Below, one piece after another: positions 11,933 to 61,190 of a stretch of DNA of 64,000 nt. The DNA comes from Spirosoma endbachense. GTDB lineage: Bacteria > Bacteroidota > Bacteroidia > Cytophagales > Spirosomataceae. The stretch lies in the NCBI RefSeq assembly GCF_010233585.1, contig NZ_CP045997.1, positions 1,577,749 to 1,641,748 on the forward strand. The letters are read 5' to 3'. Position numbers and translations under genes: made by a program. Positions within the stretch are counted from its first letter, which is position 1. Each line of letters begins with the position of its first letter. The notes beneath the pieces were generated by a model, which was not told where the DNA came from, ran no database searches, and saw nothing but the letters and a program-made list of their open reading frames with translations.

Positions 11933-13195
11933 ATGAAACGGCTGCTGTTACCGCTTATCCTAATTTTGATACTGACGGGTCATGTATGGGCCTCCAAGAT
12001 CCTGATTCCAATGGATGACTCCCAGAAGAATCACCTTAAAGCGTATGGCATTGCCTATTGGGTGCTAAAAACGCACGATACCGAAATTGACTGGCTGCTC
12101 AACTACCGTGGTGGTTCGTTCCTGATGCCCCAAAGCCAGGCCTTTATCAACGAAATGGTGATTCGGGGCGTTAGCTATGAAGTTATTTCCGATGCTCAAT
12201 CTGCCCAGATTCTGTCAGAAATTGCAGCGGCCGATGCCAATATGGACGCGGTAAAGCTGCAAAAACCACCCAAAGTAGCAGTCTATTCCCCAAAAACGAA
12301 ACAACCCTGGGATGATGCCGTAACGATGGTTATGACCTACGCCGAAATTCCCTATGACATTGTTTTTGACGAGGAGGTAATGAATGGCAAATTACCTGAA
12401 TATGACTGGCTGCACCTGCACCACGAAGATTTTACGGGGCAATACGGCAAATTTTTCCACTTCAAGGATCAACCGTGGTACATTGCTCAAAAGCAGGAAG
12501 CCGAAAGCATCTCACGTAAGTTTGGTTTTACAAAGGTACCTCAACTAAAGCGGGCCGTTACCCAGAAAATTCGCGATTTTGTGCTTGGTGGAGGCTACCT
12601 TTTCGCCATGTGTAACGCTACCGATACGTATGATATCGCGCTGGCGTCTCAAAATACAGACATTGTCGATGCGTTCTACGACGGCGATCCAGCAGACCCC
12701 AATGCAAACAGTAAACTGGATTATAGTCAGACATTTGCCTTCCGGAACTTTCAGGTATATACCAATCCATACCTGATCGAATTCTCGAATATTGACAACC
12801 AGCCCGAAGAACGGGGTCTGAGTGAACACAATGATTATTTCACGTTGTTTCAGTTCTCAGCGAAGTACGACCCTATTCCGACGATGCTTACCCAGAACCA
12901 TCTGAACGTCATTAAAGGGTTTATGGGGCAAACAACGGCATTCAAGAAAAATTTGATTAAGCCTGAAGTAGTCATCATGGCCGAAAATCGTTCTGCGGGT
13001 GAGGCTCGATATATCCATAGCCCCTACGGTCGCGGGTTCTTTACCTTCTACGGCGGTCACGACCCGGAAGACTATCGGCACGAAATTGGGGAAGAACCAA
13101 CCGATCTCAATTTACATCCCAACTCGGCGGGTTATCGTCTTATTTTGAATAATATTCTGTTCCCGGCAGCGAAGAAGAAGAAGCAAAAAACCTAG
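11933..13195 (+). CDS. Secreted protein of the group annotated as asparagine synthetase B
   Basis: This 420-residue protein has a signal peptide (MKRLLLPLILILILTGHVWA). It resembles a Bacteroidota family that databases often call asparagine synthetase B. I see neither an N-terminal Cys nucleophile nor an ATP-pyrophosphatase P-loop, so that name is not supported. The pattern PPKVAVYSPKTKQPWDDAVTMVM near 96, the later FVLGGGYLFAMCNATDTYD and RGFFTFYGGHDPEDY suggest a class I glutamine-amidotransferase-like flavodoxin fold exported to the periplasm. The C-terminal tail is lysine-rich. It stands alone, converging on the nuclease gene through a shared terminator. Its function is unknown. Confidence 0.7.
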   Translation: MKRLLLPLILILILTGHVWASKILIPMDDSQKNHLKAYGIAYWVLKTHDTEIDWLLNYRGGSFLMPQSQAFINEMVIRGVSYEVISDAQSAQILSEIAAADANMDAVKLQKPPKVAVYSPKTKQPWDDAVTMVMTYAEIPYDIVFDEEVMNGKLPEYDWLHLHHEDFTGQYGKFFHFKDQPWYIAQKQEAESISRKFGFTKVPQLKRAVTQKIRDFVLGGGYLFAMCNATDTYDIALASQNTDIVDAFYDGDPADPNANSKLDYSQTFAFRNFQVYTNPYLIEFSNIDNQPEERGLSEHNDYFTLFQFSAKYDPIPTMLTQNHLNVIKGFMGQTTAFKKNLIKPEVVIMAENRSAGEARYIHSPYGRGFFTFYGGHDPEDYRHEIGEEPTDLNLHPNSAGYRLILNNILFPAAKKKKQKT

Positions 13196-13244
13196 CAATT
13201 AAGCAAAAAGGCGAGCCGTTGCTCGCCTTTTTGCTTAATTGCTA
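13193..13244. terminator. Bidirectional terminator overlapping both stop codons
   Basis: Two perfect 24-base arms surround the loop CGTT. The core AAAAAGGCGAGC/GCTCGCCTTTTT supplies the T run in both directions. The stop codon of the plus gene (TAG 13193-13195) and that of the minus gene (13235-13237) both lie inside the stem. Confidence 0.9.
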
Positions 13245-14293: not shown

Positions 14294-14518
14294 AACTGTA
14301 AAACTACAGAGTTTGACTATAACCCGGTTGTCAGTCGGCAAGAATTAGTAAGGTATAGATTGGTTAATGCCTTCTTCCAGCCGACGAACCACAAACGCCA
14401 AACTGCTGTTACACGACTTTCACCGAAACAGCGTCAACACGCAATAGGCCGGGGCTAGTTTTAATACCACCAGAAACCCTGACACGGCTCCCGGTGAAAG
14501 TTCTGTCATACAAAAATT

Positions 14519-16278: not shown

Positions 16279-16338
16279 ATTTTGGGGGTTTATAGCCTGT
16301 GTGCTTTCACCTACGAACACCCAATCAATTAATACAGG

Positions 16339-16425
16339 ACTTTCGCTCATCGGTGTAAAGGGGTGCCACGGTTTCTAATCTTGCTACCAATAATCGTGGG
16401 GCCTCTCTACACCGATGAGCGAAGT
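16339..16425. repeat. GTGCCAC-core hairpin, copy 1
   Basis: Outer arms ACTTTCGCTCATCGGTGTA and TACACCGATGAGCGAAGT pair with one bulge. Inside is an imperfect inner stem around GTGCCACGGTTTC, with an apical loop containing TTGCTACCAATAAT. It lies between two convergent genes, where a terminator is expected, but there is no long T run. The core recurs at 37820-37902 and 45269-45343 with different outer stems. Confidence 0.75.
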
Positions 16426-16433
16426 CATATAAG

Positions 16434-25205: not shown

Positions 25206-25251
25206 AAGAAAGGAGGTTGGGTTTAAATGTAAAGCCGCAAGGCTTTTCGTG

Positions 25252-25317
25252 AAGAGCGCAACGATTATGCAGAGTACGTTAACTTTTGCGGCCTCTGCGG
25301 AATCCTCGCGCTCTTTG
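25252..25317. repeat. Intergenic imperfect hairpin (GAAGAGCGCAACG type)
   Basis: GAAGAGCGCAACGATTATGC with GAG at the end pairs with CTCTGCGGAATCCTCGCGCT plus CTTT (19 of 24 positions). It lies between two genes of the glycan locus and is the sort of GCAAAGAGCGCGAGG repeat common in intergenic DNA of this phylum. It may reduce read-through into the GH106 gene. Confidence 0.5.
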
Positions 25318-37803: not shown

Positions 37804-37819
37804 GGGTAGAATGATGAAT

Positions 37820-37902
37820 GCTGATGGATGAGTACTAAGACCGTGCCACTATTAAGAGCATCATCAGAAACCGTGGCACGGTCCTAGTACTCATCCATCA
37901 GC
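37820..37902. repeat. GTGCCAC-core hairpin, copy 2
   Basis: Two 30-base arms pair with a single mismatch: left GCTGATGGATGAGTACTAAG then ACCGTGCCAC, and the complementary right arm. The loop is 23 bases. The minus strand carries GTGCCACGGTTTCTGATG, almost the same as copy 1, and the shared apical motif TGCT..AATA. It lies just after the hemL stop. Confidence 0.85.
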
Positions 37903-37911
37903 CTTTCACCG

Positions 37912-39201
37912 TTAATCGTTCATTGCCTCTTGTAAACTCTCTTCATTTGCCTGAATGATCTGTGCGACCAAAGCATCAGTGAGCGCAACGGATAAAAACA
38001 GGCTTTCAAACTGCGAGGGAGCCAGATAAACACCCCGCTTCAGCATGGCATGGAAATACCGGCCGAACAGCGGCAAATCACACGTTTTTGCCTCCGTAAA
38101 ATTCGATACAGCATGGTCAGTCATGAACAGGGTGAACATCGACCCAATGTGGTTGATCGTATAATTCAGGCCAACTTTCTGCAACCCTGCCTGAAAACCG
38201 GTTACCAGTGCCGTACCGATTTCTTCCAGTCTTGTATACACCTCCGGGTGATCGTTCAGGTGATGCAGCATAGCCAGCCCTGCCGACATGGCAATGGGGT
38301 TTCCGGAGAGCGTACCTGCCTGGTAAACGGGCCCTACCGGCGACACTATATTCATAATTTCGGCACGGCCACCGTAGGCTCCAACGGGCATACCACCCCC
38401 AATGATTTTACCCATTGTTGTCAGATCAGGCGTAATACCAAATCGTTCCTGCGCACCGCCTTTAGCCAGCCGGAAGCCGGTCATTACTTCATCAAAGATC
38501 AGCAATGCCCCGTGTTGATCGCATAGTGACCGAACACCCTCCAGAAAACCAGGCTCTGGCAATACACAGCCCATATTCCCAACAACGGGCTCCAGAATAA
38601 TAGCAGCAACCTGATTATGATTGTTGTCCAGTAATTTCTCTACAGCCGCCAAATCGTTAAATGGCGCAGTCAGTGTGTCGGCCGCCGTTGCTTTCGTTAC
38701 GCCGGGACTATCGGGAACGCCCATTGTCATAGCTCCGCTTCCCGCAGCAATCAGGAACGAATCGCCATGCCCATGATAGCAGCCTTCAAATTTAATGATC
38801 TTGTCGCGTCCGGTAAAGCCACGCGCAACCCGGATTGCCGCCATGGTGGCTTCTGTGCCTGAATTAACCATGCGCACTTTCTCGACGGAGGGGACCATGC
38901 TGGTAATCAGTTCCGCCATTTCAACCTCTTTGCGCGTAGGTGCGCCAAACGAAAATGAATGCTGAATGGCATCCCGAACGGCTTTTTCCACGGGTTCAAA
39001 CGCGTGGCCCAGAATCATTGGTCCCCATGAGTTGATCAGTTCGATGTACTGTCGCCCGTCTTCGTCATAGAGATAAGGCCCTTTAGCCGATTTGATAAAG
39101 ATGGGCGAGCCTCCGACTGCCCGAAATGCCCGAACGGGTGAGTTAACCCCGCCCGGTATCAGCGTTTTCGCCTTCTCAAATAATTCTTCGCTTGTTGTCA
39201 T
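37912..39201 (-). CDS. hemL: Glutamate-1-semialdehyde 2,1-aminomutase
   Basis: This 429-residue PLP enzyme converts glutamate-1-semialdehyde to 5-aminolevulinate, the C5 route to haem. Typical blocks are LIPGGVNSPVRAFRAVGGSPIFIKSAKG at the N-terminus, INSWGPMILGHAFEPV, VRMVNSGTEATMAAIRVARGFTGRDKIIKFEGCYHGHGDS near 105-145, LIFDEVMTGFR near 235 and the PLP lysine in TTMGKIIGGGMPVGAYGG (Lys near 265). It is full length with the ATG at 39201. It lies 71 bases downstream of the TPR/periplasmic-binding gene, and a strong hairpin after it separates it from the glycosyltransferase. No other haem genes are near. Confidence 0.95.
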   Translation of the reverse strand: MTTSEELFEKAKTLIPGGVNSPVRAFRAVGGSPIFIKSAKGPYLYDEDGRQYIELINSWGPMILGHAFEPVEKAVRDAIQHSFSFGAPTRKEVEMAELITSMVPSVEKVRMVNSGTEATMAAIRVARGFTGRDKIIKFEGCYHGHGDSFLIAAGSGAMTMGVPDSPGVTKATAADTLTAPFNDLAAVEKLLDNNHNQVAAIILEPVVGNMGCVLPEPGFLEGVRSLCDQHGALLIFDEVMTGFRLAKGGAQERFGITPDLTTMGKIIGGGMPVGAYGGRAEIMNIVSPVGPVYQAGTLSGNPIAMSAGLAMLHHLNDHPEVYTRLEEIGTALVTGFQAGLQKVGLNYTINHIGSMFTLFMTDHAVSNFTEAKTCDLPLFGRYFHAMLKRGVYLAPSQFESLFLSVALTDALVAQIIQANEESLQEAMND

Positions 39202-43067: not shown

Positions 43068-43142
43068 AGTTTTCAGTCTTCAGTTTTTAGTTAAAAAGTC
43101 AGGAAAATCAGACTGAAAACTAAAAACCGAAGATTGAAAACT
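43068..43142. repeat. Low-complexity inverted repeat (AGTTTTCAGTCTTCAG)
   Basis: Two 25-base arms, AGTTTTCAGTCTTCAGTTTT with TAGTT and its complement, pair with two mismatches. A further tandem AGTTTTC precedes the left arm. It lies after pyrG and before yidC; a terminator or attenuator role is likely. Confidence 0.65.
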
Positions 43143-44850: not shown

Positions 44851-45399
44851 GATTGAAACCTGTTTAGGTCGTTACGGGATGTAAAGGTACGAGAAAAAAG
44901 GCGGAATGGCAGAAAAGAAATCAGGAAAAAGTTAACTACTTGCGGCAGGTCGGTAGCATAGGCACTGATTCTGCGCCGGTTAGCCTGAATTTTATTTACT
45001 GGCCCTAAGCATAGCCACTCCACCGAACAAGGAGCCCGTTTAGCAGCCAAGTAATTTGGCCATAGTCCCTTTAAACAATAGACCAAACCTCAATATTTTT
45101 CGCTCTCTTACTTTTTATTTGCCATAGCGCAGAAAACCAGATCAACTTCGGGCAAAGCCAACCCGGTAGAGAAGTCTGCTGACTAGTTGTAAACCAGAAA
45201 TGGTAACAACACTTTTCAGGTCAGTTGGCCGACCAGAACTTGTTTCGATTGACGCTATGCTTTTCGTTAAATCAGGCAAAAAGAGGTGCCACCGTTACAT
45301 TTAGAGTAATGGGTAAACCTTGGCACCTCTTTTTGCCTGATTTAGTGCCATAAAAGAACGGCTGTCAATCAAAATCTTTAATCACAAACTCTCTGCTGT
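44851..45399. other. Intergenic region before pyrG
   Basis: About 550 bases lie between pyrG and the dehydratase gene. They hold the pyrG promoter near 44,880-44,920 and a large hairpin (45269-45343). No gene-like frame was found; a 96-codon minus-strand frame that overlaps the pyrG start has no coding character. Confidence 0.5.
45269..45343. repeat. GTGCCAC-core hairpin, copy 3
   Basis: Two perfect 23-base arms, AAATCAGGCAAAAAGAGGTG with CCA and its complement, enclose a 29-base loop. On the minus strand the apical part begins GTGCCAAGGTTTACCC, clearly related to copies 1 and 2. The outer stem has A/T runs like a bidirectional terminator. It lies downstream of the threonine dehydratase gene. 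Confidence 0.8.
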
Positions 45400-46347
45400 T
45401 CAAAACGGCAGCTTGCCTAAATCGACGTTTCCACCGGTTAAAATGATACCAATTTTTTGACCTGCAAATTGATCCTTGTGTTTGAGCACGGCTGCCAGTG
45501 GCACCGCACACGACGGCTCGATTACAATTTTCATCCGTTCCCACACCAGTCGCATGGCTGCAATAATTTCGGCATCCGATACCGTCAGAATTTCGGTGAC
45601 GTGTTCACGAATAATCCCCAGCGTTCGCTCACTGAGGGTGGTCATCAATCCATCGGCTATGGTGTTGATATAGGGCGCTTTTTCGACGCGGCCAGACCGG
45701 AACGACAGCACGGCATCGGCTGCCCCTTCAGGTTCTCCTGCAATAACGCGGGTTGTCGGCGACATAAAATGGGTAGCGAGCGACGTACCGCTGAGTAGCC
45801 CTCCCCCACCCACCGGAGCCAGAATGGTGTCAAATGTTTTTTCTAAGCCAAAATCCTCCAGTAGCTCTTTAGTAGCCGTGGCCTGTCCTGCAATCACCCG
45901 GTCGTCGTCGAAGGGATGTACGAGCACGGCTCCGGTTCGTTCCATAACCTCACGCACTCCAGCTTCGCGGGCATCGAGCGTAGGTTCGCACTCGATAATT
46001 TCAGCACCATACCCTCTGACAGCCTCTTTTTTGACCTGTGGGGCCGTTCGCGGCATTACAATATAAGCCGGTAATCCTACCTGCCGAGCCGCAAAGGCGA
46101 CTGCCTGAGCATGATTGCCCGATGAGTGCGTTGTAATGGCCGCTCCTTCTTTATTTTCAGCTACCTGTAAGACGGCGTTCAAGCCACCCCGCGCTTTGAA
46201 GGCGCCTATTTTCTGAAAATTTTCACACTTGAAAAACAGGTCGGCTCCGGCCCGGTCGTTTATCGTATGGTTCGTTAAAACAGCAGTACGGTGAATATAG
46301 GGACGGATTCTGTCGTGAGCTTCACGAATGGTATCGAAAGAAATCAT
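45400..46347 (-). CDS. Threonine/serine dehydratase (PLP, fold type II)
   Basis: This 315-residue enzyme probably deaminates threonine or serine to the 2-oxo acid. The PLP lysine lies in KIGAFKARGGLNAVLQ (about 51-66), the Asn-containing THSSGNHAQAVAFAARQVGLPAYIVMP follows, and the glycine loop reads PVGGGGLLSGTSLA near 180. There is no C-terminal ACT regulatory domain, so it is of the short catabolic or serine-racemase-like type rather than IlvA. It is a single gene with a strong hairpin beyond its stop, and divergent from the isomerase/epimerase gene at 46519. Confidence 0.88.
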   Translation of the reverse strand: MISFDTIREAHDRIRPYIHRTAVLTNHTINDRAGADLFFKCENFQKIGAFKARGGLNAVLQVAENKEGAAITTHSSGNHAQAVAFAARQVGLPAYIVMPRTAPQVKKEAVRGYGAEIIECEPTLDAREAGVREVMERTGAVLVHPFDDDRVIAGQATATKELLEDFGLEKTFDTILAPVGGGGLLSGTSLATHFMSPTTRVIAGEPEGAADAVLSFRSGRVEKAPYINTIADGLMTTLSERTLGIIREHVTEILTVSDAEIIAAMRLVWERMKIVIEPSCAVPLAAVLKHKDQFAGQKIGIILTGGNVDLGKLPF

Positions 46348-53450: not shown

Positions 53451-53963
53451 ATGGCAACAATCCGGATTATTCAGGGCGACATCACCAAGCAGGCAGTTGA
53501 TACAATTGTGAACGCAGCCAACGAAAGTTTACTGGGAGGTGGAGGTGTTGATGGGGCGATTCATCGCGCGGCTGGCCCGGAGTTACTGGCCGAATGTCGC
53601 ACTCTTCACGGCTGCAAAACGGGCGACGCCAAGATGACCAAAGGCTATCGACTACCCGCCAGCTACGTAATTCATACGGTAGGGCCAGTCTGGCGCGGGG
53701 GCACACACGGCGAACCCGACCTATTGGCAAGCTGCTACCGCCGTTCGCTCGAAATTGCGACAGAAAACGGCCTGGTTAGTATTGCGTTCCCTAACATTAG
53801 CACCGGAATCTTTGGCTACCCTAAAGACGACGCAGCCGATATAGCTATAACATCGGTTCGCCAGTTTCTGAAACAGCCAACGACTCTTCAGGACATTGTT
53901 TTTGTCTGCTTTGATGATGACAATTTTTCACTTTATAACAAGCGACTGTCTGCAACAAACTAA
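53451..53963 (+). CDS. Macrodomain protein, O-acetyl-ADP-ribose deacetylase type
   Basis: The 170-residue protein has the full macrodomain. [47 protein letters not shown] carries the ADP-ribose-binding Asp of GDIT and the Asn-Ala-Ala-Asn and Gly-rich loop of the MacroD/YmdB type. [11 protein letters not shown] and [11 protein letters not shown] contribute the second loop. It removes acyl or ADP-ribose adducts from small molecules or proteins. It is a single gene ending in a strong terminator, without toxin or sirtuin neighbours. Confidence 0.93.
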
Positions 53964-54001
53964 AAGAAGCGTGGGCTGCTACCTACCCACGCTTCTTTTA
54001 G
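53960..54001. terminator. Bidirectional terminator between convergent genes
   Basis: Perfect 16-base arms CTAAAAGAAGCGTGGG and CCCACGCTTCTTTTAG with a ten-base loop. The stop codon of the macrodomain gene is inside the left arm, and the stop of the minus gene follows the right arm by one base. Confidence 0.9.
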
Positions 54002-54002
54002 T

Positions 54003-54398
54003 TTAGTCATTCCCGATAACAGAGGTGCTATCGGTCTTGCGTTTACGTTGCCTAACGAGTCCTTCCGAACTAGCTGGCTCACCCACGCGCTGAATTTTAT
54101 AATTACGCTCAGCCAAGGTCACCGAAGGCGTATGATCAACAGTAATTCCTCCTGCTGGCTCTGCATTTGGTAATCCCTTTTTATAATCAGCCACTCGAAC
54201 ATCGCTCGGTGCCGGTTGTTGAACGGCAACGCCCGTTTTTTCTTCCCAACGACGGGCTGTAGCTGCTTTATTCGGGTGCTTATAATTGTGGGTAGAATAC
54301 GTTGGATCGTTGCGTAGCTTTCGATCATTTTGTGCGTGTGTTTGTCCGGCTAAAGCCAGCAAACCCAAACCCGTTAATAATATGAATCCAATTTTCAT
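54003..54398 (-). CDS. Small secreted protein, paralogue A of a pair
   Basis: This 131-residue product from ATG 54398 has a signal peptide (MKIGFILLTGLGLLALAGQTHA). Its mature part shares NDPTYSTHNYKHPNKA, ADYK and GGITVDHTP with the next gene in the same orientation (54702-55085), so the two are tandem paralogues. Between these blocks the two are unlike. The tail is basic (RQRKRKTDS). The family is not one I recognise. Tyr, His and Asn are frequent in the shared block, which might bind metal or haem or be a surface-structure motif; this is not established. Confidence 0.7.
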   Translation of the reverse strand: MKIGFILLTGLGLLALAGQTHAQNDRKLRNDPTYSTHNYKHPNKAATARRWEEKTGVAVQQPAPSDVRVADYKKGLPNAEPAGGITVDHTPSVTLAERNYKIQRVGEPASSEGLVRQRKRKTDSTSVIGND

Positions 54399-61146: not shown

Positions 61147-61190
61147 ATAGCAAAAAAGCGCAGGCCAATTGACCTGCGCTTTTTTGCTAT
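61147..61190 (-). terminator. Terminator after the PorE-like gene
   Basis: Perfect 18-base arms ATAGCAAAAAAGCGCAGG and CCTGCGCTTTTTTGCTAT with an eight-base loop. It starts 23 bases after the stop of the gene ending at 61213 and has the T run on the correct strand. Confidence 0.9.

What the first reader, a model, noticed from the sequence alone, without database searches (positions are those of the whole stretch)
16339..16425. A family of intergenic hairpins with a conserved GTGCCAC core
Three intergenic hairpins (16339-16425, 37820-37902, 45269-45343) carry the same apical sequence on one strand: GTGCCACGGTTTC in two and GTGCCAAGGTTTA in the third. In the first two the loop also agrees (TGCT, then AATA). 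They are all beyond gene ends. This is not the random stem expected of ordinary terminators and implies a repeat family or a structural signal. I do not recognise it as a named element.
Basis: seen in the sequence. Interest (0 to 1): 0.72.

Follow-up and report, generated by a model that had tools for sequence, protein, structure and literature searches.

The report
Mobile hairpin repeats with rewritten stems
The three hairpins belong to a family of small mobile DNA repeats scattered between genes of this soil bacterium and its relatives, whose stems appear to be re-copied from one arm to the other, so their matching base changes need not mean a working RNA.

Summary
The three hairpins are members of a dispersed palindromic repeat family, about 220 copies in this 10.3-Mb genome (genus inferred: Spirosoma), extrapolated from 34 loci in 80 sampled 20-kb stretches. 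None of 37 loci is centred in a called gene, and they favour gene ends. A full copy is a ~80-bp near-perfect palindrome with a constant cap, GTGCCACGGTTTC..loop..AACCGTGGCAC, and variable outer arms. Against the closest genome, seven family copies are clean one-sided insertions, four with a plausible 4-6 bp target repeat, so the element moves. No Y1 (IS200/RAYT) transposase was found in this genome, nor an autonomous partner in partial searches. Shared hairpins, family and other, change both arms together (34 double changes, 4.3 expected); one 5-nt insertion is mirrored in both arms and copy 1's loop is inverted. Sense-strand mismatches are as often A-C as G-U. This fits template-switch copying of DNA better than selection on RNA. 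A 29-bp form with almost no outer arm occurs in other Cytophagales and Chitinophagales. REP- and MITE-like, but neither definition is fully met.

The parts
16336..16426 (+). Family copy 1, between convergent ORFs; core GTGCCACGGTTTC at 16363-16375. The orthologous hairpin in the closest genome G001 has the loop inverted and a partly different stem.
   Evidence: (73.5 bits)
37820..37902 (-). Family copy 2, 9 nt past the end of the aminotransferase ORF (37912-39201, -) and upstream of a glycosyltransferase ORF. At this site G001 has another hairpin with the same base (GCTGA..TCAGC) but no core.
   Evidence: (73.1 bits)
45268..45344 (-). Family copy 3, with a loop like those of two S. arboris copies (L293, L311; by eye); 55 nt past the end of the PALP ORF (45400-46347, -). 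Absent at the orthologous place in G001.
   Evidence: (57.4 bits)
14414..14508 (-). G001 has the empty site.
   Evidence: (18.2 bits)
14410..14413 (.). TACA, left copy of the presumed target repeat of the decayed copy
14509..14512 (.). TACA, right copy of the presumed target repeat of the decayed copy

Best explanation
The hairpins are copies of a non-coding mobile palindromic repeat (REP/MITE-like) of Spirosoma. A full copy is an about 80-bp near-perfect palindrome: outer arms (commonly TAGGACTTTCGCT..), a constant cap GTGCCACGGTTTC / AACCGTGGCAC, and a ~17-nt loop. Copies insert between genes (shown by filled and empty sites), probably through an enzyme supplied in trans that is not an IS200/RAYT-type transposase (inferred) and leaves a short A+T-rich target repeat (plausible in four of seven cases). 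Once in place, the palindrome is re-copied arm to arm by fold-back template switching during replication (inferred from paired substitutions, a mirrored indel, flipped loops, and sequence that is stem in one species and unpaired flank in the other). That turns over the outer stem while keeping it paired. The cap stays constant because it is what the mobilising enzyme recognises, or because it marks recent common descent (inferred, undecided). Copies persist mainly past stop codons, where they presumably do least harm; there they may also act as 3'-end or terminator structures (not shown).
For: Dispersal: 34 loci in 80 sampled 20-kb stretches plus 3 in the window; 0 of 37 centred in a called gene while 83% of the sequence is called coding. 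Mobility: in 317 kb aligned to G001, 7 of 11 one-sided indels of 30-400 bp are clean gains of one family hairpin, 4 here and 3 in G001, with plausible target repeats (GTATC with one mismatch, AAATT, TATA, TACA) in 4 of 7. Stem rewriting: of 54 hairpins in the aligned part, 37 were compared (5 flagged family-like, 32 other; 10 unmapped and 7 with large length change dropped); 719 pairs show 34 double changes against 4.3 expected from the per-site rate, 32 of them Watson-Crick. The shared copy at OB 53912 / GB 82851 has 3 paired substitutions plus a 5-nt insertion present in both arms. Loops: copy 1 is inverted between species (it is not among the 37 compared); by a strict score 2 of 26 usable loops are inverted, with OA 56671 and OB 23954 more by eye. 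In OA 86572 / GA 71422 the left sequence TTYCCAAAC is unpaired flank here and stem in G001. DNA rather than RNA level: sense-strand mismatches are G-U 8 and A-C 10 in 20 family hairpins, G-U 25 and A-C 22 in 48 others. Template switching is reported to give arm homogenisation and spacer inversion (PMC8604942, abstract and passages) and to create and maintain hairpins (PMC8794818, abstract).
Against: No transposase or autonomous partner found. The target repeat is not uniform in length and is unclear in 3 of 7 insertions. Only 5 hairpins in the arm comparison were flagged family-like, by a loose motif, and two of them (OB 142225, OB 144536) are doubtful members, so the arm-copying statistics rest mostly on other hairpins. 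By the strict loop score 15 of 26 loops are unchanged and 9 unclear. Loop inversion could also come from recombination between the arms. The G-U test has little power and rests on my own approximate gene calls. Only one close relative was available, so the direction of change is often unknown.
Confidence: 0.72

Rival explanations
1. A structured RNA or 3'-end signal (terminator, mRNA-stabilising hairpin, protein-binding hairpin) kept by selection: the cap is bound by a host factor and the stem is kept paired by compensatory selection.
For: Strong covariation (0 of 500 shuffles reach it); 16 of 33 copies within 30 nt of a stop codon against 9% of random placements; outside Spirosoma 19 of 30 copies lie 2-36 nt past a stop codon; T-runs at the stem base are no rarer than in other long hairpins (3 of 16 against 10 of 48).
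Against: Clean recent insertions and patchy presence in the genus (12 of 36 genomes); no excess of G-U over A-C on the sense strand; mirrored indel and loop inversion are not expected from stepwise compensation; 5 of 33 copies lie between divergent genes.
Confidence: 0.17
2. A REP/REPIN system moved by a RAYT (Y1 HUH transposase).
For: Short palindromic form of REP size; extragenic; gene-end bias; 11 of 13 carrier genomes searched hold Y1_Tnp genes (two of the 11, G020 and G050, appear to be one genome).
Against: No Y1_Tnp in the own genome nor in G001 and G051, although G000 and G001 gain new copies; no GTAG or CGTC tag; the two Y1 genes of Niastella caeni have no family hairpin within the 235-333 nt read on either side.
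Confidence: 0.06
3. A MITE proper: internally deleted derivative of a DDE transposon whose terminal repeats are the ~35-nt arms.
For: Terminal inverted repeats, no coding capacity, short A+T-rich target repeats in four cases. This is a narrower form of the best explanation.
Against: No kb-spaced inverted arms seen: 57 exact AGGACTTTCGCT sites (reversed control 6), of which 13 unpaired ones were fetched and 6 of these read with their ORFs by eye, none beside an obvious transposase; none in the listed part of 278 looser arm matches (control 47), nor in 2.46 Mb searched; outer arms vary much for a fixed transposase binding site.
Confidence: 0.3

Closest known systems
REP elements / REPINs (GTAG and CGTC super-families)
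   Same: Small extragenic palindromes in tens to hundreds of copies, often downstream of genes, non-coding; CGTC REPs also lack a dedicated transposase (PMC3733652, passages).
   Different: No GTAG or CGTC tag; the long form has stems of 18-49 positions in 29 sampled copies against 5-13 bp, the short form 13 bp; no Y1 gene in this genome; variable outer arms.
Prokaryotic MITEs (e.g. RUP, BOX, SPRITE; Correia recalled)
   Same: Inverted ends, no ORF, insertion between genes, presumed trans mobilisation (review PMC10969869, passages; in part recalled).
   Different: Almost wholly palindromic; outer ends variable while the centre is constant; no parent transposon found; target repeat not uniform.
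Quasipalindrome correction / template-switch mutation
   Same: Arm homogenisation and spacer inversion as described for yeast genes (PMC8604942) and hairpin maintenance for RNA genes (PMC8794818).
   Different: Here seen in a dispersed bacterial repeat family and other long intergenic hairpins between two species, with an insertion mirrored in both arms.
Intrinsic (bidirectional) terminators
   Same: Long intergenic hairpins at gene ends; this genome has many others, which also change both arms together; T-runs are equally seldom.
   Different: Family copies carry a conserved GTGCCACGG cap, absent from 83 of 83 other long hairpins, and are more scattered (16 of 33 against 59 of 80 within 30 nt of a stop codon).

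Membership tests
REP (GTAG type) | GTAG tetranucleotide at one end of the stem-loop | tested here: not met
   20 aligned copies and 51 copies from other genomes, read by eye
REP (GTAG type) | RAYT (Y1 transposase) in the genome, flanked by the repeats | tested here: not met
   PF01797: 0 matches in G000, G001 and G051; the two Y1 genes of N. caeni have no family hairpin within 235-333 nt on either side; Y1 genes of the other carriers were not read
REP (CGTC type) | CGTC tag, stem 8-9 bp, loop 4-5 | tested here: not met
MITE | Terminal inverted repeats and no coding capacity | tested here: met
   Inverted arms; ~80-bp length leaves no room for a transposase gene
MITE | Target site duplication of constant length | tested here: inconclusive
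   Plausible 4-6 bp repeat in 4 of 7 clean insertions, unclear in 3
MITE | Autonomous transposon with the same ends | tested here: inconclusive
   None found in partial searches; the whole genome could not be read
Mobile element in general | Filled and empty orthologous sites | tested here: met
   7 clean one-sided insertions in 317 kb
Intrinsic terminator | Stem followed by a T-tract | tested here: inconclusive
   T4 or longer near the 3' base in 3 of 16 family and 10 of 48 other hairpins; none of 17 sites of the consensus scan lies on copy 2 or 3, but that scan only allows loops of 3-8
Rfam RNA family | Match above gathering score | tested here: not met
   Only a tRNA in the window; copy 1 gives sub-threshold microRNA-precursor matches, as any long hairpin might
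Template-switch (quasipalindrome) evolution | Multi-base paired changes and spacer inversion between relatives | tested here: met
   the enzymatic cause is not testable here

The most novel reading that the evidence does not exclude
A family of mobile hairpins spread across Bacteroidota in which only the cap (CCGTGCCACGGTT/AACCGTGGCACGG, each arm itself nearly palindromic) is the recognised unit of an unknown, non-Y1 mobilising enzyme, while the outer stem is grown and rewritten by template switching at the site where it lands. If so, the covariation normally taken as proof of a functional RNA is here a product of DNA copying, and the genus offers hundreds of natural records of how fast this happens.
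Probability: 0.35. Interest if true: 0.66.

Novelty: new variant of a known kind. Interest (0 to 1): 0.5.

Why it matters
Covariation of paired bases is the usual proof of a selected RNA structure. Here it is very strong, yet the between-species record (mirrored insertion, flipped loops, A-C as common as G-U) points to copying at the DNA level. The family would give a natural, countable system for measuring template-switch rates in bacteria, and a warning for searches that infer RNAs from covariation. It also points to an unidentified mobilising activity in Bacteroidota that spreads hairpins in genomes without a detectable Y1 transposase.

Tried and rejected
Rfam: no gathering match for the hairpins in the window; permissive matches on copy 1 are microRNA precursors, read as generic hairpin scores; 6 fetched loci gave one weak match, E 0.56. 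RAYT/IS200: judged unlikely for this genome. Autonomous partner by arm sequence: 57 exact sites against 6 for the reversed pattern; of the unpaired ones, 13 were fetched and read by eye as hairpin variants or truncated arms; ORFs of 6 of the 13 were read by eye only, with no family search; the site near 9825104 was not read. Looser pattern: 278 sites against 47 control, only part listed. A search of 2.46 Mb found decayed copies, no kb-spaced pair. Empty-site reading at copy 2 across the genus did not work beyond G001, because the spacer differs too much among the 30 loci taken. Copy 3 as terminator-plus-cap hybrid: dropped, because S. arboris copies have the same AAAAAG next to the cap; whether G001 never had copy 3 or lost it is open. 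Copy number from model E-values alone was not trusted, since unrelated long hairpins can score; the core test was added (2 of 37 lack the core). Exact 13-mer matches L009, L011, L012, L014, L016 in relatives are not family hairpins and were not counted; the reversed pattern also rings in some of those genomes. Genus name: G020, of the same genus, has the same Y1 hit coordinates as the genome of the Spirosoma arboris locus L282. Papers: PMC8794818 abstract and opening; PMC8604942 abstract and passages; PMC3733652, PMC6006769, PMC10969869 passages; the rest only as search listings. Nine searches of an open-access library, six of them aimed at this family, showed no description of it; subscription papers were not searchable.

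Full report
Observation. The 13-mer GTGCCACGGTTTC occurs 14 times in the 10,326,072-base genome, at 13 places, against none for the reversed pattern. From 20 copies (13 of this genome by exact 13-mer, copy 3, and 6 of G001) I built an alignment and a covariance model. In the window it finds the three copies with E from 2e-13 to 6e-18 and, weakly, a fourth at 14401-14507 (18.2 bits, E 0.018).

Copy number and place. A search of the whole genome scored only 150 of 2,110 candidates, and 149 of them matched, both strands of each palindrome being counted, so it gives a lower bound only. I therefore took 80 stretches of 20 kb spread along the chromosome, denser in its first 1.7 Mb, and searched them with the window: 70 matches at E up to 0.01, which I reduced to 37 distinct loci, 34 of them outside the window. 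That scales to about 220 per genome. Of the 37, 35 carry the core with up to two mismatches, against 0 of 83 other long hairpins; the two-armed core is found 24 times, against 1 in the reversed sequence. None of the 37 is centred inside a gene by my own codon-based gene calls, which cover 83% of the sequence. Of 33 copies with a called gene on both sides (4 at stretch ends left out), 16 lie within 30 nt of a stop codon; random placement in intergenic space gives 9%. Other long hairpins of the same stretches do so in 59 of 80 cases. Family copies are thus gene-end biased but more scattered. T-runs near the 3' base of the stem are equally seldom in both (3 of 16 and 10 of 48 hairpins between tandem genes), so this feature does not tell them apart.

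Anatomy. A full copy is a nearly perfect palindrome of about 80 bp: outer arms often TAGGACTTTCGCTYRGAGCC, then GTGCCACGGTTTC, a loop of about 17 nt, AACCGTGGCAC and the mirror arm; stems of 29 sampled copies span 18-49 positions, median 30. Variants have a 3-nt loop, or a GC-rich extra stem module between GTGCCAC and GGTTTC. Each arm of the cap is itself an odd palindrome, CCGTG-S-CACGG. In the 20 aligned copies the outer stem covaries strongly: 92.4% of cells are paired against 75.4% in shuffles, 100 cells changed on both sides against 26, 0 of 500 shuffles as high.

Mobility. In the genus, 12 of 36 genomes (this one included) have a model match at 1e-10, with only 118 candidates scored in each; G000, G001 and G020 are rich (113, 110 and 56 matches, both strands). 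G001 is the closest, most aligned blocks being 91-95% identical. I fetched 540 kb of it and aligned 317 kb to this genome. Of 11 one-sided indels of 30-400 bases, seven are clean gains of one whole family hairpin: four in this genome (window 14414; OA 109252, OB 99728, OB 130369) and three in G001 (OA 100152, OB 81131, OB 91598). The other four are copy 3 (ends do not coincide with the hairpin, so gain or loss is open), a loss here that left one arm (OB 47748), an unrelated repeat (window ~25230) and one event without the family. Plausible target repeats are GTATC (left copy ATATC), AAATT, TATA and TACA; in the other three none is clear. So the family moves, and did so since the two genomes parted.

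What moves it. The Y1 transposase family PF01797, which covers RAYTs and IS200, has no match in this genome, nor in G001 and G051; it is present in 11 of 13 carrier genomes (two of these, G020 and G050, appear to be one genome). In Niastella caeni the two Y1 genes have no family hairpin within the 235-333 nt read on either side. No autonomous element with these ends was found, but not all of the genome could be read. The enzyme is unknown.

How the stems change. At shared sites the two species differ in a telling way. At OB 53912 / GB 82851 both hairpins are almost perfect, with three substitutions mirrored in both arms and a 5-nt insertion mirrored in both arms. At copy 1 the loop of G001 is the reverse complement of the loop here, and the stem differs. 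At OA 86572 / GA 71422 the left sequence TTYCCAAAC is unpaired flank here and stem in G001, where its mirror image stands on the right. Other shared copies are less tidy: the pair at OB 90046 has several unmatched changes here, and the pair at OB 80970 has decayed in both. Taking all hairpins of at least 14 pairs in the aligned part (54; 37 comparable, 10 unmapped, 7 dropped for length change), 719 pairs show 43 single and 34 double changes; independence predicts 4.3 doubles; 32 of 34 are Watson-Crick. Only 5 of these hairpins were flagged family-like by a loose motif, two of them doubtful (6 doubles, 0.84 expected); the 32 others behave alike (28 doubles, 3.5 expected). By a strict score 2 of 26 usable loops are inverted, 15 the same and 9 unclear; OA 56671 and OB 23954 look inverted by eye. 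If RNA pairing were selected, mismatches on the transcribed strand should be G-U rather than A-C. They are 8 against 10 in 20 family hairpins and 25 against 22 in 48 others between tandem genes. This strand symmetry, the mirrored insertion and the flipped loops fit template switching of DNA synthesis, which is reported to homogenise arms and invert spacers (PMC8604942, abstract and passages) and to make and maintain hairpins (PMC8794818, abstract).

Distribution. In one genome per GTDB species, the exact pattern CCGTGCCACGGTT-N3-30-AACCGTGGCACGG occurs in 50 stretches (51 copies by my count), in Spirosoma arboris, endophyticum and fluviale, Telluribacter, Persicitalea, Niastella, Longitalea and unnamed Bacteroidota. 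Outside Spirosoma 28 of 30 copies are a 29-bp form with a 3-nt loop, with few or no paired bases beyond the cap, and 19 of the 30 lie 2-36 nt past a stop codon by longest-ORF calls (over all 51 copies 5 overlapped an ORF and 6 lay at a stretch end). With up to 3 mismatches the short form is present in 13 of 15 genomes searched, 2 to 34 places each, with the reversed control at 0 in all but one genome, where it is 1 per strand; most of those genomes were chosen because they carry it. The short form may be ancestral and the long Spirosoma form derived; this is inference.

Verdict. It is best read as a REP/MITE-like mobile palindrome of unknown mobilising enzyme, whose stems are turned over by template switching. 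It meets the test of a mobile element, fails the tests of GTAG and CGTC REPs, and meets those of a MITE only in part. No description was seen in nine searches of an open-access library.

Noticed in passing
window 25231-25314: An unrelated repeat (GTGAAGAGCGC..GCGCTCTTTGCG) is present here and absent in G001; L072 12604-12694 looks like a similar kind.
   Followed up: no
window 37804-37911 and orthologous loci L168-L197: At the site of copy 2 several Spirosoma species carry different, unrelated hairpins or AATGATGAATGATGA repeats between the same two genes: fast turnover of gene-end hairpins.
   Followed up: partly
L011 near 1600 and L271 near 1400 (beside the matches): Another short hairpin type, like GGTGTCGGTTTTGAGAAACCGACACC, recurs in these genomes and may be a sister family.
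   Followed up: no
window 13193-13244, 53957-54004, 61147-61190: Long symmetric terminator-like hairpins with A- and T-tracts within the stem; other long hairpins in the aligned part show paired arm changes and some loop flips between species.
   Followed up: partly
L063 18273-18380, L074 17915-18028, L099 19728-19853: A GC-rich extra module (such as CGCAGCCGCGGACGGT) is nested in the stems of some family copies, as if the stem had grown from within.
   Followed up: no
window 43068-43142: Hairpin built of TTCAGTCTTCAGTTTTTAG-like repeats between two genes.
   Followed up: no
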